Of a stretch of DNA of 64,000 bases, positions 37,457 to 61,724 are shown piece after piece. Each line of letters starts with the position of its first letter. Position 1 is the first letter of the stretch. Both the position numbers and the translations under genes were made by a program. The stretch is from NCBI RefSeq assembly GCF_946478805.1, contig NZ_CAMLDC010000001.1, positions 124,001 through 188,000 on the forward strand. Reading direction: 5' to 3'. The stretch is from an uncultured Fluviicola sp. GTDB taxonomy: Bacteria; Bacteroidota; Bacteroidia; Flavobacteriales; Crocinitomicaceae. The notes under the pieces were generated by a model that had not been told where the DNA came from, did not search any database, and saw only the letters and a list, made by a program, of their open reading frames with translations.

Positions 37457-37494
37457 AGAAGCCCATTGAACTTTGTTCGATGGGCTTCTTTTTT
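37457..37494 (+). terminator. Intrinsic terminator with no assigned gene upstream
   Basis: AGAAGCCCAT (37457-37466) pairs with ATGGGCTTCT (37480-37489), with an inner GAAC/GTTC, followed by TTTTT. The T run is on the plus strand only, so it does not serve the convergent uvrA gene. Confidence 0.85.
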
Positions 37495-49201: not shown

Positions 49202-50335
49202 GTGAAAAAAATTCAAATGGTTGACTTGGCCACTCAGTACCAAGCAATAAAAACGGATATCGATTCAGCTATTCAGGAAGTTTTGGATTCAGCGATTTTT
49301 ATTGGTGGACCGGTGGTTCAGCGTTTTCAGAAATCATTGGAAACGTATTTGGATGTGAAGCACGTAATTCCGTGTGCCAATGGAACGGATGCCTTGCAGA
49401 TTGCCATGATGGCTTTGGGATTGAAAGCAGGTGACGAGGTCATTACCCCTTCGTTCACTTACATTGCTACAACAGAAGTGATCGCCTTATTGGGATTAAC
49501 TCCGGTATTTGTCGATGTGGACCCGAAGACATTCTGCATGGATCCTTCGAAAATTGAGGCTGCAATCACTTCGAAAACAAAAGCGATCGTTCCGGTTCAT
49601 TTATACGGACAGGCATCGGATATGGATGCGATCATGAAGATTGCGAAAAAACATAACTTGTTTGTTGTCGAAGACAATGCCCAAGGAATCGGTTCCGATT
49701 ATTATTTGGAATCGGGTGAAACTAAGAAGTTGGGTACAATTGGGGATATTGGCTGCACAAGCTTTTTTCCATCAAAGAATCTGGGTTGTTATGGTGACGG
49801 TGGTGCAATTTTCACAAACAATGATGCATTGGCAGAGCAATTGAGAATGGTTGCAAACCATGGTCAGAAAGTGAAATACCAACACGATGTGGTCGGCTGC
49901 AATTCCCGATTAGATGCGATGCAGGCAGCGATTCTGAACGTCAAACTCCCGAAATTGGATGAATACATTGCTGCGCGGATCAAAGTGGCGGATTTCTACG
50001 ACCAGGCGCTTGGAACATCTGAAAAAATAGAAACCCCAACCAGGGATGGAAAGTCAAAACATGTATTTCACCAATATACCGTTCAATTGAAAGGTGTTGA
50101 CAGGGATGCATTGCAAGCGTATCTGGCATCAAAAGACATTCCGTCGATGATTTATTATCCCGCTCCGGCACATAAACAAGGAATGTTCAAATCATTCAAC
50201 TTGGGAGATTTGGATCTGCCGGTGACGGAAGCATTGACGAAATGCGTGATTTCATTCCCTATTCATACAGAAATGACAGAAGAGCAACAAACCCTTATTT
50301 GTTCTGAGATCCTGAACTTCTTAAACGCTAACTAG
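49202..50335 (+). CDS. DegT/DnrJ/EryC1 aminotransferase, WbpE-like
   Basis: This PLP-dependent sugar aminotransferase probably converts a UDP-3-keto-GlcNAc-uronate to its 3-amino form, as WbpE does. The start is GTG (49202), giving the usual opening KKIQMVDLATQYQAIK in 377 residues. The PLP lysine lies in FFPSKNLGCYGDGGA, and VVEDNAQGIGS carries the ring-stacking part. It lies 3 bases upstream of ugd. The WbpE role is inferred from the WbpD-, WbpB- and WbpA-like genes further along the strand; other amino sugars are possible. Confidence 0.88.
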   Translation: MKKIQMVDLATQYQAIKTDIDSAIQEVLDSAIFIGGPVVQRFQKSLETYLDVKHVIPCANGTDALQIAMMALGLKAGDEVITPSFTYIATTEVIALLGLTPVFVDVDPKTFCMDPSKIEAAITSKTKAIVPVHLYGQASDMDAIMKIAKKHNLFVVEDNAQGIGSDYYLESGETKKLGTIGDIGCTSFFPSKNLGCYGDGGAIFTNNDALAEQLRMVANHGQKVKYQHDVVGCNSRLDAMQAAILNVKLPKLDEYIAARIKVADFYDQALGTSEKIETPTRDGKSKHVFHQYTVQLKGVDRDALQAYLASKDIPSMIYYPAPAHKQGMFKSFNLGDLDLPVTEALTKCVISFPIHTEMTEEQQTLICSEILNFLNAN

Positions 50336-50338
50336 AAC

Positions 50339-51655
50339 ATGAAAAAAATTGCTGTTGTTGGAACCGGTTATGTCGGTTTGGTAACCGGGACCTGTTTTGC
50401 TGAAACGGGAAATCAAGTGATCTGCGTAGATATTGATAGTAAAAAAGTGGAACGCATGCGCAATGGAGAAGTTCCTATTTACGAACCGCACCTGGATGTG
50501 CTTTTTGAACGGAATATCAAAGCGAACCGCTTGTCTTTCACCACGAACCTGGAAGAAGGGATCCGGGATGCGGAAATTATCTTTTTGGCTTTACCGACTC
50601 CTCCGGGAGAAGATGGTTCGGCCGATTTGAGGTACATTCTGGGTGTTGCAGACGATTTGGGTAAATTATTGAAAGATTACAAAGTTATTGTAGATAAAAG
50701 TACTGTTCCGGTAGGGACGGCTGAAAAAGTTCATGCTGCCATTGCAAAAAATGCGACGGTGGACTTTGATGTTGTTTCCAACCCGGAGTTCCTGAGAGAG
50801 GGATATGCCGTGGACGATTTCATGAAACCAGATCGCGTGGTTTTGGGAACTTCTTCCGAACGTGCGGAACGCATCATGGAACAATTATACAAACCATTTG
50901 TCCGCCAGGGAAACCCGATTATTTTCATGGATGAAAAATCCGCAGAGTTAACCAAATATGCTGCAAATGCATTTTTGGCTACCAAAATCACTTTTATGAA
51001 TGAAATCGCGAATTTCTGTGAATTGGTGGGTGCAGATGTGGATAAGGTGCGCATCGGGATCGGTTCGGACGAACGGATCGGTAAACGCTTCCTATTCCCG
51101 GGTATCGGTTACGGAGGTTCGTGTTTCCCGAAAGACGTTCATGCATTATACAATTCGGGAGCGGAAAACCAATTTTCATTTGAGATCTTGAAGGCTGTGA
51201 TGGCTGTCAATGAATCCCAAAAAACCGTTCTTTTCCCGAAAATGCAGAATTTTTTCAGAGGAGACCTAGCCGGAAAAAAAATTGCCTTGTGGGGCTTGGC
51301 TTTCAAACCCGACACGGACGATATTCGTGAAGCACCGGCATTGTATATGATTGACGAACTAACCAAAGCAGGAGCCATTGTGACCGCATATGATCCGGAA
51401 GCGATGGAAAATGTAAAAGCACTCGTTGGAACCAGGATTTCCTTTGTGGAGAATGAATACGATGCCTTGAAAGATGCAGATGCCCTGTTGATCTGTACGG
51501 AATGGGGCGTATTCCGTAATCCGGATTTCGACAAAATGAAGTCTTTGATGAAAGATTCCGTTATCTTCGATGGAAGAAATCTATTCGAGGTTTCCGAAAT
51601 GAATAACAAGGGCTTCTATTATAGCTCGATTGGTAGATCCGTAGTATCGAAATAA
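50339..51655 (+). CDS. ugd: UDP-glucose 6-dehydrogenase
   Basis: Ugd oxidises UDP-glucose to UDP-glucuronate with two NAD. The 438 residues have the N-terminal Rossmann motif [17 protein letters not shown], the central helix block [20 protein letters not shown], the catalytic cysteine in [16 protein letters not shown], and the C-terminal domain with [18 protein letters not shown]. Its product is the substrate of the next gene, 1 base downstream. Confidence 0.95.
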
Positions 51656-51656
51656 G

Positions 51657-52655
51657 ATGAGTACAAGCAGAAAACGCATATTGATTACCGGTGCAGCCGG
51701 ATTTTTAGGTTCTCATTTGTGTGACCGTTTCATCAAGGACGATTACCATGTGATTGCAATGGATAACCTGATCACAGGTCGTTTAAAAAACATCGAACAC
51801 TTATTCCAATTGGAAAACTTCGAGTTTTATAACCACGATGTGAGCAAGTTTATTCATGTTTCCGGTGAATTGGATTACATCCTGCATTTCGCATCGCCGG
51901 CAAGCCCGATAGATTACCTGAAAATCCCGATCCAGACATTGAAAGTAGGATCCCTGGGAGTTCACAATTGTTTGGGATTGGCGCGTGTGAAGAATGCACG
52001 CATATTGATTGCAAGTACATCCGAGATTTATGGTGACCCGACGGTTCATCCGCAAACAGAAGAATATTGGGGAAATGTGAATCCCGTTGGACCAAGAGGT
52101 GTTTACGACGAAGCGAAACGTTTCCAGGAAGCAATCACCATGGCGTATCATACATTTCATGGACTTGAAACACGGATTGTTCGCATCTTCAATACGTACG
52201 GACCGCGTATGCGCTTGAACGACGGGCGCGTATTACCTGCATTTATCGGACAGGCGTTGCGAGGGGAAGACCTGACCGTATTCGGAGACGGCTCCCAGAC
52301 ACGTTCATTCTGTTATGTGGATGATTTGGTGGAAGGGATTGTCCGTTTGTTGCATAGCGATTGTTCGGATCCGATCAACATTGGAAACCCGGATGAGATC
52401 ACCATCAGCCAATTTGCGGAAGAGATCATCAAATTGACAGGAACAAGCCAAAAAGTCATTTACAAGGACCTGCCTGTCGACGACCCGAAACAACGTCAGC
52501 CGGATATCACAAAAGCACGAAAATTGCTTGGTTGGGAACCCAAAATTGACCGGGCGGAAGGGTTGAAACGGACGTACGCTTATTTTAAAAGTTTAACCAA
52601 GGAAGAATTGTACCAATCGGATCATATCGATTTTGAGAAGTACATCGTTAGATAA
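51657..52655 (+). CDS. UDP-glucuronate decarboxylase (UDP-xylose synthase)
   Basis: This extended short-chain dehydrogenase decarboxylates UDP-glucuronate to UDP-xylose. The 332 residues show [16 protein letters not shown] for NAD binding, the serine in [10 protein letters not shown], the catalytic [10 protein letters not shown], and [10 protein letters not shown], all in the UXS pattern. It follows ugd by 1 base, so glucuronate production and decarboxylation are coupled. Xylose-containing glycan is the expected product, which I cannot confirm. Confidence 0.93.
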
Positions 52656-52667
52656 TTACTAATTGAA

Positions 52668-52740
52668 GACTTAAGACCAAAGACTTAAGACCAAAGACAA
52701 ATGTTGTTTAAAGTCTGTTGTCTTCGGTCTGTTGTCTTTT
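52668..52740. repeat. AGAC-type tandem and inverted repeat
   Basis: Two tandem copies of a 14-base unit, GACTTAAGACCAAA (52668-52695), are followed by an imperfect inverted copy of the same AAGACnnnAGACC pattern at 52711-52740. The element fills the space between the decarboxylase and the acetyltransferase genes. Confidence 0.65.
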
Positions 52741-52757
52741 CACTTTTCAATTTATAT

Positions 52758-53327
52758 ATGGATTATTTTGCACACGAAACAGCTATAGTTGATGCCGGCT
52801 GTATTATTGGTGAAGGAACCAAGATCTGGCATTTTTCGCATATCATGCCCAATTGCACAATCGGTGAAAAATGCAATATCGGGCAGAATGTGGTGGTTTC
52901 TCCGGAAGTCATTCTAGGGAACAATGTCAAGATTCAGAATAACGTTTCTATCTACACGGGTGTGATCTGCGAAGACGATGTGTTCTTAGGTCCGTCGATG
53001 GTTTTCACCAATGTGATGAATCCGCGTTCGGCTGTAAATCGAAGAGACCAATATTCGAAAACCGTTGTGCGTAAAGGCGCTTCCATCGGGGCAAATGCAA
53101 CAATCGTTTGTGGAAACGATATCGGTGAATACGCCTTCATAGGCGCAGGATCCGTTGTCACAAAAGAAGTTCCTGCCTATGCATTGGTGGTAGGAAATCC
53201 GGCAAGACAAATCGGCTGGATGAGCGCTTTCGGTCACCGCCTGACCTTTGATGAAAAAGGGTTTGCGGTTTGTCCGGAGAGCAATGAAAAATACCAGTTG
53301 GTTGAGAATCGGGTGAAGGTGGTTTGA
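52758..53327 (+). CDS. WbpD-like sugar N-acetyltransferase (left-handed beta helix)
   Basis: This hexapeptide-repeat acetyltransferase probably acetylates the 3-amino group of UDP-GlcNAc(3NH2)A, giving the diacetamido uronate. The ATG at 52758 starts [14 protein letters not shown]. Turns of the beta helix run from residue 5 to about 150, including [22 protein letters not shown] and [20 protein letters not shown], then a short C-terminal helix region. The 189 residues match the WbpD length. The 19 in-frame codons upstream are repeat-derived and not counted. Confidence 0.88.
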
Positions 53328-53544: not shown

Positions 53545-54600
53545 TTATCTTAATAAGTTTGCATGCCCGGTCAAGACCTTCTTCTCGGTTGTATTTTCCG
53601 CTTTGTATTGCAGTTTCCAACCGAAAACTCCTTCTTTTGCAGGTGAACCGTTGTAAGTCCCGTCCCAACCAATTTCTGAGTCTAAAGAAGTAAAAACAGT
53701 TTCTCCCCAACGATCATAGACTTCAAACCGATATTCCTGTGGATCATACCCGCAGACAAAAACCGGGTTGAAGATATTGTTGTGTTCGTCTCCGTTTGGT
53801 GTAAAGGTGTTGGGAACGTAGTAGATGATTTCATCTTCAGCGAGGTTTAATTGCAGGTTATCCCAAAAGATATAGGACATTCCTCCGTCTAGATCCTGCG
53901 GTTGAAGATCATAATTACAGGAGCCTCCAAGCATGACTGAATAAATATCCTCTTTCGGTGTAAAGAAAAGATAAACGGTACTCCAGGTCTTTTGCATGGA
54001 ATAACTGATCTTTCCAACTTCTTTCCATCCAAAACTTTCAGGACACCCGGTTGTTTGAACAGGGAATGGATCACAGTCTGTTTTTCCGAATAATACTAGG
54101 TCAATCGGAATGGGGGGAGGATCAGTATTTGAAATAGCAAAATAAATGCTCGAAGCCACATTGAATTTTAGTAAATAGGACTGATCCTTAAGTAAAGGTC
54201 CGTTCAGGCAAGTGCCAATATATTCCATCCAATCTGTCTCAAAAATAGTTCCCACACAATTAGTTCCATCCGGAATAGGTAATGGTACCAGACCGGATAT
54301 ATAACCATTAGTAGAGAACAGATCTGTTGTTGCTAAAGTTGCCTGACTCCAATCTTCTGCACAATTTAATTGACTGACCCAATCCGGAATGCAATTAACC
54401 GCTTCAAAAGAAGGATTCGGGATCAGTGAAATCTTGAATGTATCTGCACGAGTACACGGACAATCTTCCACATCATACAAATCAATCAATCGATCACCAT
54501 CATCATCAATGTTATTATTACAAATTTCCTGGCTAAGCGAAGAAAAAGAGTGTAAAACAAGGAATAGAAATAATGTGAGCGAATAATTTAGTTGTTTCAT
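53545..54600 (-). CDS. T9SS type B secreted protein with jelly-roll-like domain
   Basis: This 351-residue secreted protein has a signal peptide (1-23, ending SLSQ), then a short calcium-type motif NNIDDDGDRLIDLYD. A beta-rich domain of about 190 residues starts at SLIPNPSFEAVNC and resembles carbohydrate-binding jelly rolls. The C-terminal type B sorting domain carries VPNTFTPNGDEHNN and YDRWGETVFTS. It has its own promoter box and lies downstream of the lipoprotein array on the same strand. No PorP/SprF gene is adjacent. Ligand unknown. Confidence 0.85.
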   Translation of the reverse strand: MKQLNYSLTLFLFLVLHSFSSLSQEICNNNIDDDGDRLIDLYDVEDCPCTRADTFKISLIPNPSFEAVNCIPDWVSQLNCAEDWSQATLATTDLFSTNGYISGLVPLPIPDGTNCVGTIFETDWMEYIGTCLNGPLLKDQSYLLKFNVASSIYFAISNTDPPPIPIDLVLFGKTDCDPFPVQTTGCPESFGWKEVGKISYSMQKTWSTVYLFFTPKEDIYSVMLGGSCNYDLQPQDLDGGMSYIFWDNLQLNLAEDEIIYYVPNTFTPNGDEHNNIFNPVFVCGYDPQEYRFEVYDRWGETVFTSLDSEIGWDGTYNGSPAKEGVFGWKLQYKAENTTEKKVLTGHANLLR

Positions 54601-54680: not shown

Positions 54681-55181
54681 TCAATGCTGTTTTACTGCAA
54701 TTTGCTTGCAATCATAGGCATAGTATGGGGTTACATCTTCGATGTAATAATTAATATTTGTCTTTTGAAAATTCAGACGAATTGTGTCGTTTTTGAAATT
54801 ATTATATTCTTCTGAAATACCTGCACTCAATTTCCACCTTTTAGAGTTGGAATCAAACAAAGTATCATGACCTCCGATTGATATACACATTGGGAAATTC
54901 GCAGGACTTGGATACAATTGTTTTACTGTAAAAGTAAATTCCCCATCAAAATTTTCAAACCTCAATGAATCATTTTGTTCATTTACATGTATCAAATCCA
55001 TCTCATACAAATACACGCCTGTTGTATCATACACCTTGTAATGTCCTGCAATCTTTTCCCATTTTGTTGGCTCGGGTGGAGGTGTTACAGTTGGTGTTTT
55101 CTCTTTGGTGCAAGAAAAAAACAAACCAATCCCGACGATCAACGTCGGGATTAGTGTTAAATATTTTTTGGTGAAACCCAT
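54681..55181 (-). CDS. Tandem lipoprotein paralogue F (sixth, last in operon)
   Basis: This is the last of six paralogues. The 166 residues have a lipoprotein signal (lipobox LFFSC, cysteine at about 24) and a threonine/proline linker. The conserved block KWEKIAGHYKVYDTTGVYLY and FENFDGEFTFTVKQ follow, then a variable middle (LYPSPANFPMCISIGGHD) and the shared end CKQIAVKQH. The leader is nearly identical to copies B, D and E, while the middle is closest to copy C. The beta-rich pattern could be lipocalin-like, but I recognise no named family. It starts 7 bases after copy E. Confidence 0.85.
   Translation of the reverse strand: MGFTKKYLTLIPTLIVGIGLFFSCTKEKTPTVTPPPEPTKWEKIAGHYKVYDTTGVYLYEMDLIHVNEQNDSLRFENFDGEFTFTVKQLYPSPANFPMCISIGGHDTLFDSNSKRWKLSAGISEEYNNFKNDTIRLNFQKTNINYYIEDVTPYYAYDCKQIAVKQH
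55128..55152 (-). repeat. Hairpin inside the signal-peptide coding sequence of copy F
   Basis: AATCCCGACG (55128-55137) and CGTCGGGATT (55143-55152) form a perfect 10-pair stem with a 5-base loop. Copies B, D and E keep the same stem with one change that still allows a G-U pair in RNA. Copies A and C have lost it. Confidence 0.55.
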
Positions 55182-55188
55182 CTCTATA

Positions 55189-55695
55189 TCAGTGCTGTTT
55201 CACCGCAATCTGCTTGCAGTCACAAGAATAATACGGAATAGCATCGGTAATCCAATAAGCTGTATTGTTCATTTTGAAATGCAATCTTATTGTATCATTT
55301 TTCCATTCGTTATCTAAAGCATTTGGCCAGTATTCAACTAATTGCCAAGAATGACTGTCGTTATCAATTGCAGGGTTGTGGGAACCAATTCGAATTAACA
55401 TTTCAGGCCAGTTTGAAAAAAATGATTGATACACCGTCAAATTGAAGTTTCCATCAAAATTTTCAAATCTTAAAGAATCAGTATTTGTCGGATTGTCATG
55501 AATGTAAATGAGATTCATGTCGTGTAAATATACCCCTGTTGTATCATATACCTTGTAATGTCCTGCGATTTTTTCCCATTTAGTGGGTTCCGGTGTAACG
55601 GGTGTTGGTGTCTTCTCCTTTGTGCAGGAAAAAAACAAACCAATCCCGACGATCAACGCCGGGATTAGTGTTAGATATTTTTTGGTGAAACCCAT
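55189..55695 (-). CDS. Tandem lipoprotein paralogue E
   Basis: This 168-residue lipoprotein is copy five of six. It keeps the leader with lipobox LFFSC and the KWEKIAGHYKVYDTTG block. It has the most divergent middle of the set: FNLTVYQSFFSNWPEMLIRI and a WPNALDNEWKN stretch unlike the others. Near the end it has YWITDAIPYYSCDCKQIAV in place of NYYIEDVTPYYACDC. It starts 7 bases after copy D. Function unknown. Confidence 0.85.
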   Translation of the reverse strand: MGFTKKYLTLIPALIVGIGLFFSCTKEKTPTPVTPEPTKWEKIAGHYKVYDTTGVYLHDMNLIYIHDNPTNTDSLRFENFDGNFNLTVYQSFFSNWPEMLIRIGSHNPAIDNDSHSWQLVEYWPNALDNEWKNDTIRLHFKMNNTAYWITDAIPYYSCDCKQIAVKQH

Positions 55696-55702
55696 TTTTA
55701 CA

Positions 55703-56203
55703 TCAATGCTGTTTTACCGCAATTTGTTTACATTCACACGCATAGTAGGGAGTTACATCCTCAATATAATAATTGATGTTTGTTTTTTGAAAGCGTAGCG
55801 GAATGGTATCATTGTTCCAATTGTTGTAATAGGTAAATGTTCCTCCACTTAGTTTCCATCGTTTATTATTAGAATCGTAAAGAGTATCCCATCCTCCAAT
55901 TGCTACATACATTGGGATATTTATAAAGTCTTCCTGTTGAGTCGTAAAAGTAAATTCACCATCAAAATTCTCAAAGCGGATCGAATCTCTATTCGTTGCG
56001 TTATTATGAATATGGACTAAATCCATATCGTACAAATACACGCCTGTTGTGTCATACACTTTGTAATGCCCTGCGATCTTTTCCCATTTTGTAGGTTCGG
56101 GAGTTACGATAGTAGGTGTCTTTTCCTTGGTGCAAGAAAAAAACAGACCAATCCCGACGATCAACGCCGGGATTAGTGTTAGATATTTTTTGGTGAAAAC
56201 CAT
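55703..56203 (-). CDS. Tandem lipoprotein paralogue D
   Basis: Copy four of six, 166 residues. The leader (VFTKKYLTLIPALIVGIG, lipobox LFFSC) is shared with B, E and F. The middle has the TTQQ form, FTFTTQQEDFINIPMYVAI, like copies A and B, and RWKLSGGTFTYYNNW. It ends with YYACECKQIAVKQH; the glutamate in CEC replaces aspartate of the other copies. It starts 7 bases after copy C. No catalytic motif is visible, so a binding or structural role is more likely than an enzymatic one. Confidence 0.85.
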   Translation of the reverse strand: MVFTKKYLTLIPALIVGIGLFFSCTKEKTPTIVTPEPTKWEKIAGHYKVYDTTGVYLYDMDLVHIHNNATNRDSIRFENFDGEFTFTTQQEDFINIPMYVAIGGWDTLYDSNNKRWKLSGGTFTYYNNWNNDTIPLRFQKTNINYYIEDVTPYYACECKQIAVKQH

Positions 56204-56210
56204 TTTTACA

Positions 56211-56717
56211 TCAATGCTGTTTTACCGCAATCTGCTTGCAGTCACAGGTATAGTATGGGGTTACATCTTCGATGTAATAATTGATATTCGTCTTAAGGAA
56301 ACGCAAAGGTAAAGTGTCATTGTTGTAACTATTATAATATTCGTAAGTAGCACCTCCTAATTTCCATCTCTTTGAGTTTAAATCATATAACATCATGTGA
56401 TACCCTAAATCAATATAATTTGGATAATTACTTGGATTTGGACTTGACTGCTTCACTGTAAAAGTAAACTCTCCATCGAAGTTTTCGAAGCGTAATGAAT
56501 CAACTTGGTCATTTACGTGAATATGAACAATACTCATATCATACAAATAAACACCTGTAGTATCGTAGACCTTGTAATGACCATTTACTTTTTCCCAAAG
56601 AGTTGGCTCTGGAACAGTTGGAATTATTGGTTTCTTTTCCTTGGTACAGGAAAAAAACATGCTAACCCCGACAAAGAATGTCGTGATTAGTAGTTGGTAT
56701 TTTTTAATGAAACCCAT
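56211..56717 (-). CDS. Tandem lipoprotein paralogue C
   Basis: Copy three of six, 168 residues. Its leader is divergent (IKKYQLLITTFFVGVSMFF, cysteine next) and the first block reads LWEKVNGHYKVYDTTG instead of KWEKIAGHYKVYDTTG. The middle has the TVKQ form with SSPNPSNYPNYIDLGYHMML, closest to copy F. So the leader and the body point to different relatives, which suggests recombination between copies. It lies 12 bases after copy B, the widest gap in the array. Confidence 0.85.
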   Translation of the reverse strand: MGFIKKYQLLITTFFVGVSMFFSCTKEKKPIIPTVPEPTLWEKVNGHYKVYDTTGVYLYDMSIVHIHVNDQVDSLRFENFDGEFTFTVKQSSPNPSNYPNYIDLGYHMMLYDLNSKRWKLGGATYEYYNSYNNDTLPLRFLKTNINYYIEDVTPYYTCDCKQIAVKQH

Positions 56718-56729
56718 TTCCTTCTAAAA

Positions 56730-57236
56730 TCAATGCTGTTTGACTGCAATTTGCTTACAATCACAGGCGTAATAAGGGGTTAGATCTGAAATGTAATAGT
56801 TGATGTTCGTTTTTTGAAAGCGTAATCGAATCGTATCATTATCAAAGATGTTAAAGTATTCTAGATAAATACCCGACCATAATTTCCATCTTTTTGAATT
56901 TGAATCAAAAAGGGTATCATGACCATCAATAGATACAGCCATTTGAACAGTTAAATTGTCTTCTTGTTGAGTAGTAAAAGTAAATTCACCATCAAAATTT
57001 TCGAAGCGGATCGAATCCCTATTTGTTATATTATTATGACTATGGATCAAATCCATGTCATACAAATAGACTCCCGTTGTGTCGTACACCTTGTAATGTC
57101 CTGCGATCTTTTCCCATTTTGTTGGCTCGGGTGGAGATGTTACAGTTGGTGTTTTCTCTTTGGTGCAAGAAAAAAACAAACCAATCCCGACGATCAACGC
57201 CGGGATTAGTGTTAGATATTTTTTGGTGAAACCCAT
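56730..57236 (-). CDS. Tandem lipoprotein paralogue B
   Basis: Copy two of six, 168 residues. It has the common leader with lipobox LFFSC. The conserved KWEKIAGHYKVYDTTG block is followed by HSHNNITNRDSIRFENFDG and the TTQQ-type middle EDNLTVQMAVSIDGHD. The end NYYISDLTPYYACDC is shared with copy A. It starts 7 bases after copy A. Like its neighbours it is predicted to sit on a membrane facing the periplasm or the outside; which membrane cannot be told. Confidence 0.85.
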   Translation of the reverse strand: MGFTKKYLTLIPALIVGIGLFFSCTKEKTPTVTSPPEPTKWEKIAGHYKVYDTTGVYLYDMDLIHSHNNITNRDSIRFENFDGEFTFTTQQEDNLTVQMAVSIDGHDTLFDSNSKRWKLWSGIYLEYFNIFDNDTIRLRFQKTNINYYISDLTPYYACDCKQIAVKQH

Positions 57237-57243
57237 TTTTGCA

Positions 57244-57741
57244 TCAATGCTGTTTTACTGCAATTTGCTTGCAATCACAGGCATAGTAAGGTGTTAAATC
57301 AGAAATATAGTAATTGATATTTGTTTTACTAAAACGGAATGGGATAGTATCATTAAGGAAATTGTTATAATACTGGTAGGCGGCACTGCTTAATTTCCAT
57401 CTTTTTCCATCGGAATCATACAGTGGGTCGTATCCCCCAATTCTCACAAACATAGGAAGGTTTGCAAATTCTTCTTGTTGCGTTGTAAAAGTGAATTCCC
57501 CGTCAAAATTTTCAAATCGAATCGAATCCCTATTTGTTGTGTTGTTATGAATATGGACTAAATCCATGTCGTATAAATACACTCCTGTGGTGTCAAACAC
57601 CTTATAATGCCCTGCAATTTTCTCCCATTTAGTTGGTTCAGGTGTAACGGGGATTGGTGTTTTTTGCTTCGAACAAGCAAATAAGGTACTTATCCCAACC
57701 AAAGTCGGAATAAGTACCTGATATTTTGTGAACAGTTTCAT
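57244..57741 (-). CDS. Tandem lipoprotein paralogue A (first in array)
   Basis: First of six copies, 165 residues, with the most divergent leader: KLFTKYQVLIPTLVGISTLF, cysteine next, then SKQKTP. The block KWEKIAGHYKVFDTTG, the TTQQ-type middle (EEFANLPMFVRIGGYD) and the CKQIAVKQH end are retained. Its ATG overlaps the stop of the upstream T9SS protein gene by 1 base (TAATG), so translation is coupled and the whole array belongs to that operon. Confidence 0.86.
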   Translation of the reverse strand: MKLFTKYQVLIPTLVGISTLFACSKQKTPIPVTPEPTKWEKIAGHYKVFDTTGVYLYDMDLVHIHNNTTNRDSIRFENFDGEFTFTTQQEEFANLPMFVRIGGYDPLYDSDGKRWKLSSAAYQYYNNFLNDTIPFRFSKTNINYYISDLTPYYACDCKQIAVKQH

Positions 57742-60179
57742 TACATTTTAATTACTTTCCGAACAGCATAGGCCGTTCCGGAATAGATACGAATATAATA
57801 CGTTCCTTTGGAATAATCAGCTAAGGAGAAGGTTTGATTTACCACTTTATCCTTGCTCGATAGCATAATCCCTTTATCATCGAACACCTGGTAGTACACA
57901 TCGTCTGATCCTGTGCCTGAAATCTGAACTAAATCCGTTGTTGGGTTCGGGAACAAACTCAATTCTTTATCCAAACGTTCCTGATCTGCTTTAAAGGCAT
58001 CCAATCTCTCTTGTTGTTGAGGTGTGAGTGAACTGTTCACTGATTCCCCTACGTTCTGTCCATTTGGGTTTTGAGCAAGATTCACTACCGTTTGCACGTA
58101 AATGTCTCCATGCATAATCATGGATTCTCCGTTGCAACCATATAGCTCAATGGTGTAAACATATACCTGTGCCTCCGCAAGATGCTGATTTCCAGACGCC
58201 GTAGTGTAGTAGCCATCCCACCAAATGCTTGAATGTGCAATGGGGTTTTCGGGAGCAGGTGATTCGAAAGGACAACAAGCGGTAGTCTGTATTCCTGTAA
58301 TTGAATTGATAGGATCAGCACCTGCATTGGTACGCAAAATTTCCAGATGAAACCCTTTTGCTCCAAAGGCACAAAAAGGATGATTGACATCCGTCAATTG
58401 AAAAATATCATTGGTTGGATCGTTATCATCAAAATTCATGATGATAGGAACAGGAAACTGATCGTAAGTAAAACCTGCCCAATCGGTACAACAGTCTTCA
58501 CAATCGGTTACGCAGGTTGTTGGATCAATGATGCCTTCATAACCTGCTCCGGCATCCCAAAAAGAACCATAATCAAGTGTTTTTCCGGCAATGAAAGTTA
58601 CATTCGCATTTCCGGTCGAAACAACCTGGCTAAAACCGGATTGAATACATTTTCCTGCTTTCGTTTCAGCAGGAAGTGGGGTTCCACTCGGAGTCCTGTT
58701 TTCATAACTGATGCATACAGGGCATTGATCACATACGACTATTATTCGAAATTTGAAAAAGCTTGTATCTGAATCACAAGCATTATCATCAATCGCCTTG
58801 ATGCTGTAATAATATTCTCCTGTTTGAGTAGATAACGAAGTAACCCAACTTAAGGAAAATATACCACCATATGGACCAGGCGTTACCACTTGAAAACCAG
58901 AAGGGATATTATTGTCTGTTGAAAGATCAATTTGTTCATTTGAATGGTCATTTGATAGCAATGAGTTGAAGAATACCGCATCACCTTGCCTCACATAGTA
59001 GGTATATTCTCCCGTACCATTAATCCCATCCATCCATGGTGCAATATTGTTAGGTGAACTCACATTCAAATGAATACTTTCAGTATGTGTGCAGCCTTCC
59101 TGCGTGGTTACGGTTACGGTGTAAACGCCGTTTCCAATAGTTGGTGTAACGGTAAGATTCTTTAAACCTGTTCCAGTTGCCAGTTGCTGACCTCCCTGAC
59201 TCCAGGTATATGTCCATCCATTGTCTCCGGTAACCTGCAGATCAACAGGGAAGTTCTCACAGACGGGGTTACCGTCAAAGATGAAATCAATGTCGGGATT
59301 TGCAATACAAAACTCTACGGTAGCAACATCATTACAAACACCGTAGACCGTTAGTTCGGCTCGGTAGCAGGCTCCGGGAAGTGCAAATGGTAAACTGGGA
59401 GATAAGGTTCCTGCTGTTCCCTGAAGTATGCCGGAACTGTAAACAAGGGTTCCCCCATTATTAGGATAGTAAATATTCCATTCGTAGGAAGTTTCATTGG
59501 CAGATGATGAGCCATCCAAAACTGGGAGTTCTCCATAACAAAGTACTGTTTCAGCAATGCTCAGATTGGCTGTAGCAAGTGGAGTGGTTGGAGGAATGGT
59601 CATTACACTGACACTGTCAATGAAATATACGGCATCTCCGCCATATCCATTGTAAGGACCAAAAGTTACGTAATGCACTACACTGTTTTGAGCAGTGAAA
59701 CAGGCCTTGAATTTTGTACATTGAGTACTTTCAGGAGTGATTAACATTAATGGAGTTGCAGAAACAATGGAAGTTGTTGGGACAGTTTCAGACATCACCA
59801 AACCAATTGACCTGTTTACTTCCGTGGGATAATCCTTCTTCACCCAAAAAGAAACTTCATAAATTTGTCCTGCTGTAAGTGGAAGTGTAGTACCATACAT
59901 ATATTCAGGTGATCCGCTGGTTCCCGACACACCAAATCTCCCACAGCCATTACCAAAGCAAGGCGTTCCGTCCACGTCATGTGGTACACATGGATTAATC
60001 AGATCACAGGTTCCAGTGATATTATGCCAATATGCACCATATTCGATATTATATAAATTAACAGTCCCTGAAGGAGCGTCCCCGTCGCAATTTTCAAAAC
60101 TCCCGTTGAGCATCATATCCTGCGCAGTGACTTTTGCTGTTATCCCTAACAACAAAAGAAATAAGAATAAGTACCGCAT
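57741..60179 (-). CDS. Large secreted protein with T9SS type A sorting domain
   Basis: This 812-residue secreted protein has a signal peptide (1-19, ending VTAQ). An N-terminal jelly-roll-like domain (about 20-200) starts DMMLNGSFENCDG and resembles carbohydrate-binding modules. Ig/PKD-like modules follow (about 205-400) with YTWSQGGQQLATG and TVTVTTQEGCTHT. A cysteine-rich region lies at about 490-690 (CDQCPVC, CVTDCEDCC). The C-terminal type A domain begins LSLFPNPTTDLVQISG and ends in KVIKM. It heads into the lipoprotein array with a 1-base overlap and follows the tail-fibre-like gene by 1 base. Its target is unknown. Confidence 0.86.
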   Translation of the reverse strand: MRYLFLFLLLLGITAKVTAQDMMLNGSFENCDGDAPSGTVNLYNIEYGAYWHNITGTCDLINPCVPHDVDGTPCFGNGCGRFGVSGTSGSPEYMYGTTLPLTAGQIYEVSFWVKKDYPTEVNRSIGLVMSETVPTTSIVSATPLMLITPESTQCTKFKACFTAQNSVVHYVTFGPYNGYGGDAVYFIDSVSVMTIPPTTPLATANLSIAETVLCYGELPVLDGSSSANETSYEWNIYYPNNGGTLVYSSGILQGTAGTLSPSLPFALPGACYRAELTVYGVCNDVATVEFCIANPDIDFIFDGNPVCENFPVDLQVTGDNGWTYTWSQGGQQLATGTGLKNLTVTPTIGNGVYTVTVTTQEGCTHTESIHLNVSSPNNIAPWMDGINGTGEYTYYVRQGDAVFFNSLLSNDHSNEQIDLSTDNNIPSGFQVVTPGPYGGIFSLSWVTSLSTQTGEYYYSIKAIDDNACDSDTSFFKFRIIVVCDQCPVCISYENRTPSGTPLPAETKAGKCIQSGFSQVVSTGNANVTFIAGKTLDYGSFWDAGAGYEGIIDPTTCVTDCEDCCTDWAGFTYDQFPVPIIMNFDDNDPTNDIFQLTDVNHPFCAFGAKGFHLEILRTNAGADPINSITGIQTTACCPFESPAPENPIAHSSIWWDGYYTTASGNQHLAEAQVYVYTIELYGCNGESMIMHGDIYVQTVVNLAQNPNGQNVGESVNSSLTPQQQERLDAFKADQERLDKELSLFPNPTTDLVQISGTGSDDVYYQVFDDKGIMLSSKDKVVNQTFSLADYSKGTYYIRIYSGTAYAVRKVIKM

Positions 60180-60180
60180 C

Positions 60181-61347
60181 TTATTTGGAAGTTTTTTCTA
60201 ATTCAACCACTTTAGTTTTCAAAGCTTCCATTTGCAGCTTTAACTCTTCCGTATTCTTATTTTGCTGAATTAAATACAAGGTCAATTCTTCCACTTTTTC
60301 CATCAGGATTTTGTTCATCTCCATTACGTCTGCACCGTCTGCTTTTAATTCTTGTTCAGAAGGAACATTTGGCAAGTGTTTTTCTTTCTTTACAAAAGTC
60401 TCTACGTCGCTTAATGGCATCAATTGGTAAGTCGGTTCAAAAACGTAATCCGCCCAAGTGTCCAAATCCAGTTTCATTCGGCGCCCACGGATCATTCCGT
60501 TTGTTTCAACTTTGAATGTTTGCAGTGAACCGCTTCTAAGCTCTAAGGAACCTTCCGTTCCCAAATGGAATATCCGGGTTGTTCCGTTATCAATGTCCAT
60601 CGCACCGTTGGCTTGTAATAGGAATGGAGTTCTGCTGGTCGCCGTATTGATAACCTCCATAATTTTAGTGTCGGCATTGTCGTATTCAAAATACATTAAA
60701 CGCTGATAAGCAAGTGTATTACCTACCGTTCGAACCTGAACGGCAGCAGCTCTGTTTGTATTGACAAGATTAAATTTTGAAAAAGTATTCAGATCGGTAC
60801 CAACTGAAAGCGAACCATTCGCCCAGATATGTGAGTAAGCTTTGATATCCCCGATTACATCAAGACTCCTGGAAGGCGATGCCGTCCCAATTCCAACCCG
60901 AACTTCGGGGCATTCACTGAAGATCTTATTCGGTCCGTTTGCCCAGGTCGGACTAGCTACAACACCTCCAACTGCGGAACAATGTTTGGAATACAGAATG
61001 TTGTTTAATTCGGTCAGACTTCCTTTTTCTACCTGCCCTTCCGAGTTTGTAAATAAAATGGTTTCGTCTATGATATGGTCTAATACCGGAATATTCGGAA
61101 GGTACAGGTTGCCATTGACCTTCAAATCTTCGCCAACACTTGCACTGGACGACATCGTTACCGAATCGCTTACAATAAGGGTGGAATCAATGCGGGCTGA
61201 ACCTGCAACGGTCAAACGTGCAGTGGGTGCAGTTGTTCCGGTTCCCAACCCGACGTTCCCGTTTTCGGAAATGGTATTTTCCTGGGCAATAGAATTACTT
61301 GCAATAAACAAGGCTGACAAAGACAGCAAATAAGTGATTTTTTTCAT
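60181..61347 (-). CDS. Tail-fibre-like secreted protein with C-terminal coiled coil
   Basis: From the ATG at 61347 the protein has 388 residues with a signal peptide (1-21, ending SIAQ). The opening NVGLGTGTTAPTARLTVAGS and later SPSRSLDVIGDIKAYSH are typical of trimeric tail-fibre-like repeat proteins common in Bacteroidota. The C-terminal part has WADYVFEPTYQLMPLSDVE and HLPNVPSEQELKADG, then a coiled coil to the end. That motif is familiar from many uncharacterised Bacteroidota proteins. An upstream ATG at 61581 would add 78 residues before the signal peptide and is rejected. Confidence 0.83.
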   Translation of the reverse strand: MKKITYLLSLSALFIASNSIAQENTISENGNVGLGTGTTAPTARLTVAGSARIDSTLIVSDSVTMSSSASVGEDLKVNGNLYLPNIPVLDHIIDETILFTNSEGQVEKGSLTELNNILYSKHCSAVGGVVASPTWANGPNKIFSECPEVRVGIGTASPSRSLDVIGDIKAYSHIWANGSLSVGTDLNTFSKFNLVNTNRAAAVQVRTVGNTLAYQRLMYFEYDNADTKIMEVINTATSRTPFLLQANGAMDIDNGTTRIFHLGTEGSLELRSGSLQTFKVETNGMIRGRRMKLDLDTWADYVFEPTYQLMPLSDVETFVKKEKHLPNVPSEQELKADGADVMEMNKILMEKVEELTLYLIQQNKNTEELKLQMEALKTKVVELEKTSK

Positions 61348-61724
61348 GATAGTGATAATAATGATAGTGCCTACTCTGATTAAATCGTCACAAGGGCATT
61401 TTTTGGCATCCCTGTCCATGTGAAGTCTGGTTCCGATGACCTGTAATCCATCGGAACGTTGGAAAGAGGACCTTACAGGTATCCCGTTTCCGGATCTTAT
61501 GTTGTTTCGCTGAATGTGATCCAGTGAATTGTTCGCGGAGACCATTTTTAAGTATTCCGCTAACAAGTGATTAAATTCCATGTCAAATAATGCAGTGACT
61601 CTTTTTTGTTACAGTTCTTCTTTTAGCTGTGCGCTGAAAGTAATGAAAAACAATTTTACGCACACAATAGTGCATAAAAAGTTACATATTTGAATATAAT
61701 TGTTGATTTTTATTTAATTCTTAG

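What the first reader, a model, noticed from the sequence alone, without database searches (positions are those of the whole stretch)
54681..57741. Six tandem copies of one small lipoprotein gene behind a T9SS-secreted protein
Six genes encoding 165-168 residues sit head to tail with 7-12 base gaps. All have a lipobox, a conserved block around GHYKVYDTTG and the same CKQIAVKQH end. The middle (about residues 88-140) varies strongly. Conserved ends with a variable core, translationally coupled to an exported protein, resemble arrays of immunity or ligand-binding proteins. No toxin domain was recognised, so an immunity role is only one hypothesis; surface variation or dose amplification are others.
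Basis: partly seen in the sequence, partly recalled or inferred. Interest (0 to 1): 0.75.

Follow-up and report, generated by a model that had tools for sequence, protein, structure and literature searches.

The report
Lipoprotein gene array with hairpin leaders
In a Bacteroidota bacterium related to Fluviicola, six look-alike lipoprotein genes sit in a row behind a secreted adhesin-like protein; their variable parts map to one end of a predicted barrel, and the start of each gene hides an evolutionarily preserved RNA hairpin inside the code for its export signal.

The parts
57244..57741 (-). lipoprotein copy 1 (w1), 165 aa
   Evidence: ATG overlaps T9SS gene stop by one base
56730..57236 (-). 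lipoprotein copy 2 (w2), 168 aa
56211..56717 (-). lipoprotein copy 3 (w3), 168 aa
55703..56203 (-). lipoprotein copy 4 (w4), 166 aa
55189..55695 (-). lipoprotein copy 5 (w5), 168 aa, most divergent core
54681..55181 (-). lipoprotein copy 6 (w6), 166 aa; core closest to F. chungangensis copy 2
57687..57716 (-). leader stem-loop of copy 1 (stem extends over 57684-57719, 16 pairs)
57179..57211 (-). leader stem-loop of copy 2, followed by TTGTTTTTTT
56660..56692 (-). leader stem-loop of copy 3 (two of 13 positions unpaired; a run of 7 T follows)
56146..56178 (-). leader stem-loop of copy 4, followed by CTGTTTTTTT
55638..55670 (-). leader stem-loop of copy 5, followed by TTGTTTTTTT
55124..55156 (-). 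leader stem-loop of copy 6, followed by TTGTTTTTTT
57741..60179 (-). T9SS type A protein, 812 aa: CBM4-like domain, Ig-like domains, sorting domain
60181..61581 (-). fibre/coiled-coil-like exported protein (description by eye); ORF 466 aa, likely start near 61347 giving 388 aa as in F. chungangensis
53545..54600 (-). T9SS type B (CHU_C) protein, 351 aa; follows the array also in L003 and L045

Best explanation
The operon makes a cell-surface recognition complex: a T9SS-exported carbohydrate-binding-type adhesin and, coupled to it, a set of outer-membrane lipoproteins that share one barrel scaffold. Each barrel keeps one pole constant (docking to a common partner, most simply the adhesin, or a shared small ligand) and varies the other pole (recognition of, or escape from, different partners). 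Variety is kept by recombination that separates cores from leaders: leaders are homogenised within a genome, cores are shared across genomes. Each lipoprotein's signal-peptide codons also form an RNA stem-loop of terminator type; I infer that it acts as a translated attenuator: an RNA polymerase followed closely by a ribosome reads through, an uncoupled one tends to stop, so the lipoproteins are made only in step with translation and in falling amounts along the array. Shown: operon, mosaic, old copies, base-pairing under selection. Shown on predicted models only: pole asymmetry, adhesin-like partner. Inferred: surface location, docking, ligand, attenuation.
Confidence: 0.4

Rival explanations
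1. Immunity array: the T9SS protein is an antibacterial toxin and the lipoproteins protect the producer against its own and foreign variants, as TilA lipoproteins do against the T7SS lipase TslA.
For: Close architectural precedent: tandem, mosaic, copy-variable lipoproteins beside a secreted toxin (passages of PMC10730906). Cores differ within a genome; stop/start coupling. One toxin (Vip4Da2) appears in the partner's fold list at high rmsd.
Against: No clearly polymorphic domain in the partner: six-way comparison and 61 of 69 listed homologues; window entropy 1.05-2.48 bits, highest at the linker before the sorting domain. Its recognised domains are CBM4-like, Ig-like and sorting. Four solo lipoproteins could be orphan immunities, but partner loss goes with lipoprotein decay in L042.
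Confidence: 0.15
2. Surface variation: the lipoproteins are exposed coat proteins whose variable pole escapes phages, predators or grazers; no shared ligand is needed.
For: Variable loops at one pole, mosaic cores, copy number changes and decayed copies.
Against: pN/pS below 1 and similar cores recur across genomes, more like a stable repertoire than an arms race. I did not search the window for switching machinery.
Confidence: 0.2
3. The leader palindrome is a DNA-level element (recombination hot spot, or a selfish palindrome tolerated in signal peptides) rather than an RNA regulator.
For: It lies inside the leader tract that recombines within genomes; both strands fold (antisense mean z -2.6).
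Against: G-U pairs 21 against A-C 1; sense strand more stable in 16 of 17; sequence changes between genomes while pairing stays, unlike a fixed recombinase site.
Confidence: 0.2
4. The stem-loop works on translation or mRNA stability (a pause during signal-peptide synthesis, or a processing site separating the messages) and not on termination.
For: The stem is kept where the T-run is short or absent (a1, n1, w1).
Against: T-runs of 6-7 in 10 of 17 copies; most other genomic matches to the model are terminator-like by eye.
Confidence: 0.3
5. Simple dose amplification of one lipoprotein.
For: Six copies in one operon.
Against: Cores differ by more than half the residues within a genome (mean identity .47); copies are old.
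Confidence: 0.03

Closest known systems
TilA/Lpl (DUF576) tandem lipoproteins of Staphylococcus aureus with the T7SS lipase TslA (PMC10730906, passages read)
   Same: Tandem, non-identical lipoproteins in variable copy number next to a secreted protein, with recombination through a conserved stretch
   Different: No DUF576 match; partner is an adhesin-like T9SS protein without a clearly polymorphic domain; exchange here homogenises the leader
Avidin/streptavidin barrels
   Different: 4-9% identity in the rows shown; no Pfam Avidin match; biotin site not examined; Foldseek E not significant
Premature terminators with translated leaders, e.g. the pil1 pilus attenuator of Streptococcus gallolyticus (PMC3894217, abstract and section list read) and ORF-internal 3' ends in E. 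coli (PMC7815308, passages read)
   Same: Ribosome passage through a stem-loop terminator would decide downstream transcription
   Different: Here the stem is inside the signal-peptide codons of the structural gene itself and is repeated in the copies of an array
Adhesin-type extracellular domains (CBM4-2, gingipain K2/K3 domains, GhpA of Aureispira)
   Same: Fold matches of the partner protein
   Different: Low identity; ligand unknown

Membership tests
DUF576/TilA immunity lipoproteins | DUF576 sequence family | tested here: not met
   not among the Pfam matches at E<=1 for six copies or at 0.1 for 65 members
DUF576/TilA immunity lipoproteins | cognate secreted toxin with polymorphic toxin domain | tested here: not met
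   no polymorphic domain seen, adhesin-type folds; residues beyond ~480 barely tested by fold
DUF576/TilA immunity lipoproteins | tandem, mosaic, copy-variable lipoproteins | tested here: met
Avidin/streptavidin | eight-stranded meander barrel | tested here: inconclusive
Avidin/streptavidin | Pfam Avidin sequence match | tested here: not met
Avidin/streptavidin | biotin binding | not testable with these tools
   needs biochemistry
Lipocalin | lipocalin fold | tested here: inconclusive
   some lipocalin/FABP rows in Foldseek, none significant
Intrinsic terminator | G+C-rich stem followed at once by a U-tract | tested here: met
   w2, w4, w5, w6 and, weaker, w1 match the scan; w3 is not listed there
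Intrinsic terminator | U-tract conserved with the stem | tested here: not met
   T-run >=6 in 10 of 17 hairpin copies
Intrinsic terminator | RNA 3' ends at the site | not testable with these tools
   needs RNA data
Conserved structured RNA | compensatory base changes beyond shuffles | tested here: met
   four of five measures
Known Rfam family | match at gathering score | tested here: not met
   0 matches in the window
Bacteroidota surface lipoprotein export signal (PMC5080379, passages read) | C-X-K-(D/E)2 | tested here: inconclusive
   of 124 proteins 120 fitted the lipobox pattern I used (which itself asks K/R/E at +3 and D/E/K/Q/H at +4): +3 K in 120, +4 D/E in 100, +5 K in 106; Fluviicola's own signal unknown
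T9SS type A substrate (partner protein) | C-terminal Por_Secre_tail above cut-off | tested here: met
   34.7 bits, cut-off 27; TIGR04183 37 bits, cut-off 23

The most novel reading that the evidence does not exclude
A 'translated terminator': the hydrophobic core of a lipoprotein signal peptide is written so that its own mRNA forms a terminator-type stem. In an array each gene would carry its own gate, tying transcription of the next copy to translation, perhaps to signal-peptide pausing, of the present one. The base-pairing constraint has reshaped the signal peptide: between the related copies g1 and u1 all six stem differences fall into three compensated pairs, with amino-acid changes such as I to T and V to A.
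Probability: 0.25. Interest if true: 0.75.

Novelty: new variant of a known kind. Interest (0 to 1): 0.6.

Why it matters
Tandem lipoprotein arrays can be immunity sets, as in S. aureus. Here the genes pair a barrel with a constant and a variable pole with a T9SS adhesin-type protein, and carry a covarying RNA element inside the signal-peptide code. It gives a testable case of selection acting on protein export and RNA structure in the same codons, and a possible way for bacteria to meter expression within gene arrays.

Tried and rejected
Recent gene conversion as the cause of identical ends: rejected, silent sites are near saturation there (window residues 38-62 pS .77, pN .09; C-terminus 153-165 pS .64, pN .04); the leader is the exception (residues 1-37 pS .48). 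Positive selection on the core: not found (pN/pS .39-.58 in the window, up to .81 in L041). Known families: no Pfam match above cut-off (DUF4369 at 15 bits against 25), no NCBIfam match for the four copies scanned, no solved relative (one chain at E 0.79), no Rfam match, no tRNA. The hairpin as a general feature of exported genes: the T9SS protein's leader can form a short stem but is not beyond synonymous shuffles (z -1.3 to 0.7 in five copies). The hairpin core as the commonest terminator type of F. chungangensis: not supported, 0 of 15 perfect non-ORF stems of at least 9 bp in 400 kb had the CCCGR core. A local export-signal consensus from SusD proteins: no SusD in the 7 genomes searched. 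Lipocalins were not among the 50 rows shown by the second aligner, which proves nothing.

Rows set aside: one search uses only copies with a visible stem, which favours the structure; one search is a same-spacing set that keeps g2, u2 and s1 but leaves out w1, n1 and the L042 copy; n2, n3 and g4 were in neither (they are in the table, where the anchor of n2 and n3 is uncertain); the third copy of L003 was left out because it holds N. In one search two loci (L073, L078) were read at a wrong position and they were left out; one search reads them at the right one. In one search the fibre gene of the window was entered two codons late. Of 69 partner homologues 61 went into the alignment.

Literature: nine searches. 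None of the listings showed a report of this array or of a hairpin in lipoprotein signal-peptide codons; the library holds open-licence papers only. Papers: PMC5080379, PMC10730906 and PMC7815308 passages only; PMC3894217 abstract and section list; all others search listings only.
Full report
What is there. Six minus-strand ORFs of 165-168 codons with gaps of 7-12 bases fill 54681-57741. All carry a lipoprotein-type signal peptide and end in CKQIAVKQH; identity to the first copy is 61-77%. The ATG of the first copy shares a base with the stop of an 812-aa protein with a T9SS type A sorting domain. Upstream lies an exported protein that looks fibre-like by eye (ORF 466 aa, probably 388 aa by comparison), downstream a type B T9SS protein of 351 aa.

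Family and distribution. A profile of the six finds 283 proteins at E 0.001, a second round 290; of each round the best 120 are listed, and the names given there are of Fluviicola, Crocinitomicaceae and Wandonia where an organism is named. In the family of F. chungangensis 13 of 240 genomes have a match, with at most 15 candidates scored per genome; of the 10 genomes behind the first loci all match, with 1-4 matching stretches each, fragments included. No curated family is matched above its cut-off.

Operon. In 15 fetched loci scanned beside the window, the order fibre-like gene, T9SS protein, lipoprotein(s) occurs in L002, L003, L041 and L010, and T9SS protein plus three lipoproteins at a contig start in L045; the type B protein follows in L003 and L045 as in the window. 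L011, a distant relative, has lipoprotein, T9SS-like piece, lipoprotein. L005, L007, L008 and L009 have a single lipoprotein without the partner in the fetched flanks; in L001 and L006 the lipoproteins lie at contig ends; L043 has before it, at a contig end, a T9SS-like C-terminus that does not match the partner; in L044 this scan found nothing (one search reports a stop-ridden remnant there). In L042 the place of the partner is taken by an 823-aa protein that does not match it at E 1e-5; the last residues before the lipoprotein read, by eye, like the partner's C-terminus, and the lipoprotein has lost its lipobox Cys and its frame. That the lipoprotein decays where the partner is lost is one case only. 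By hand count, 19 of 66 distinct contig lengths in the partner's homologue list recur among the 124 listed lipoproteins; equal length is a proxy for the same contig.

Age and mosaic. Between the six window copies silent differences are near saturation in the conserved blocks (residues 38-62, 73-88, 132-152, 153-165: pS .64-.86, pN .04-.19), so these are held by selection on the protein. Residues 63-72 have pS .61, pN .30; the core 89-131 has pN/pS .48 (.58 for 89-108.74 and .81 for that stretch in L002 and L041). The leader 1-37 differs: pS .48, and copies 2, 4, 5, 6 are on average 96-98% alike over the first 20 alignment codons and then diverge. Across the 16 copies of genomes with more than one, the nearest neighbour of the leader is in the same genome for 10, that of the core in another genome for 14. 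Permuting genome labels gives P 0.0002 for leader homogenisation and about 0.03 for cores being less alike within a genome than expected. The latter is suggestive only, being one of several regions tested.

The leader stem-loop. Folding the first 81 nt of the genes shows a stem-loop about 25 nt after the ATG in all six window copies, z -3.2 to -4.5 against synonymous shuffles, at most 1 of 300 shuffles as stable; a repeat with F. chungangensis codon usage gives -2.9 to -4.0. It is also in c1-c3 and the c4 fragment (L002), g1 and g3 (L041), u1 (L003), a1 (L001), a2 (L006), n1 (L045) and the broken L042 copy, 17 in all. Of these n1 (z -0.9, -0.5) and g3 (-2.1, -1.9) are not extreme. It is absent in g2, g4, u2, n2, n3, in solo copies s1, d7, d8, d9 (L005, L007, L008, L009), in d43 (L043), in the L010 copy and in the one L011 copy tested. 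It is present in the first copy of all six Fluviicola-type operons (window, L002, L041, L003, L045, L042). In 400 kb of F. chungangensis the three intact copies rank 1, 2 and 7 of 353 ORFs by this z; five other ORFs reach z below -3.

Selection on pairing. On the 17 hairpin copies (15 distinct) 98.4% of cells pair, 9 of 13 pairs show changes on both sides, 19 such cells against 4.5 in shuffles, 0 of 500. On the same-spacing set, which includes g2, u2 and s1, 90.3% pair and 7 pairs covary, 1 of 500 shuffles reaching this; the count of further pair types is not exceptional there (58 of 500). Shuffles do not allow for relatedness. Third codon positions pair with third positions, so silent compensation is possible: c3 and the c4 fragment differ in the stem by one fully silent compensated pair; g1 and u1 differ by three compensated pairs and nothing else in the stem; w3 against c3 differs by two uncompensated changes. 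Over all 92 comparisons of unlike rows of equal spacing: 168 compensated, 160 one-sided but paired, 42 one-sided broken, 8 both-sided broken; these are not independent. Non-Watson-Crick cells are 21 G-U, 1 A-C, 2 other, and the sense strand is the more stable in 16 of 17, which points to the transcript. The antisense strand is also structured (mean z -2.6 against -3.5).

What it resembles. A covariance model of the stem finds all six window copies (E 1.2e-10 to 3.4e-7) and the array leaders of the other genomes, which it matches by construction. In 10 genomes it gives 87 rows at E up to 1, from at most 150 candidates scored per genome; I count 21 rows at array leaders and 61 other places. All 61 were read: 53 lie outside mechanical ORFs of 70 aa or more, and by eye many have the A-run, stem, T-run look of terminators (34 places, 27). 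Eight fall inside such an ORF; several of these carry the same A/T flanks, so the ORFs may be spurious, and none lies in what I recognise as a signal peptide, but one, in L135, sits in a 206-aa frame and reads IPVSIVGM, much like the leaders. The terminator scan lists w1, w2, w4, w5 and w6 (12 sites found in the region against 6.6 expected). T-runs of 6-7 follow in 10 of 17 copies, 1-5 in the others. So the stem is what is kept; termination is plausible for the window's copies 2-6, doubtful for a1 and n1.

Reading. I favour a surface recognition complex with an attenuating leader (0.4 for the whole; the operon, mosaic and stem-loop are near certain). Immunity has a good precedent in TilA but the partner fails its key feature as far as tested. 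A translational or stability role of the stem is a serious rival (0.3). Coupled transcription-translation and attenuation as general mechanisms are established knowledge; whether they operate so in Fluviicola is not known to me.

Noticed in passing
L042 9212-9813: Operon in decay: T9SS partner apparently reduced to a C-terminal remnant (by eye), lipoprotein without lipobox Cys and out of frame, yet the leader stem is intact.
   Followed up: partly
L011 9579-11705: Distant Bacteroidota locus with alternating T9SS-like pieces and lipoproteins, as if the pair itself had been duplicated.
   Followed up: partly
L010 6901-6933: Single-copy operon without the leader stem but with a perfect 14-bp hairpin near the 3' end of the lipoprotein gene.
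   Followed up: no
L009 7833-10468: Solo lipoprotein next to ORFs that look, by recall, like an integrase and a Bro/antirepressor protein; possible transfer by a mobile element.
   Followed up: no
L009, L010: Records titled Chitinophaga pinensis and Chryseobacterium gleum MAGs, yet their genomes (G008, G009) came up in the family of F. chungangensis: the titles look wrong.
   Followed up: no
L135 around 1001-1023: A CCCGG..TCGGG stem inside a 206-aa frame reading IPVSIVGM, the one match to the stem model in a plausible other gene.
   Followed up: no
window 49202-53327: Plus-strand cluster that reads, by recall, as nucleotide-sugar genes (aminotransferase, sugar dehydrogenase, epimerase, acetyltransferase), opposite to the array.
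   Followed up: no
window 37457-37489: A 14-bp hairpin between ORFs, the only other stem in the window that passed that scan besides one array leader and the T9SS leader.
   Followed up: no
lipoprotein residues 155 and 157 (copy 1 numbering): A CxC motif in the last strand is near invariant in the aligned homologues but incomplete in L009, L010 and L043; the partner is Cys-rich with many invariant Cys. Function unknown.
   Followed up: no
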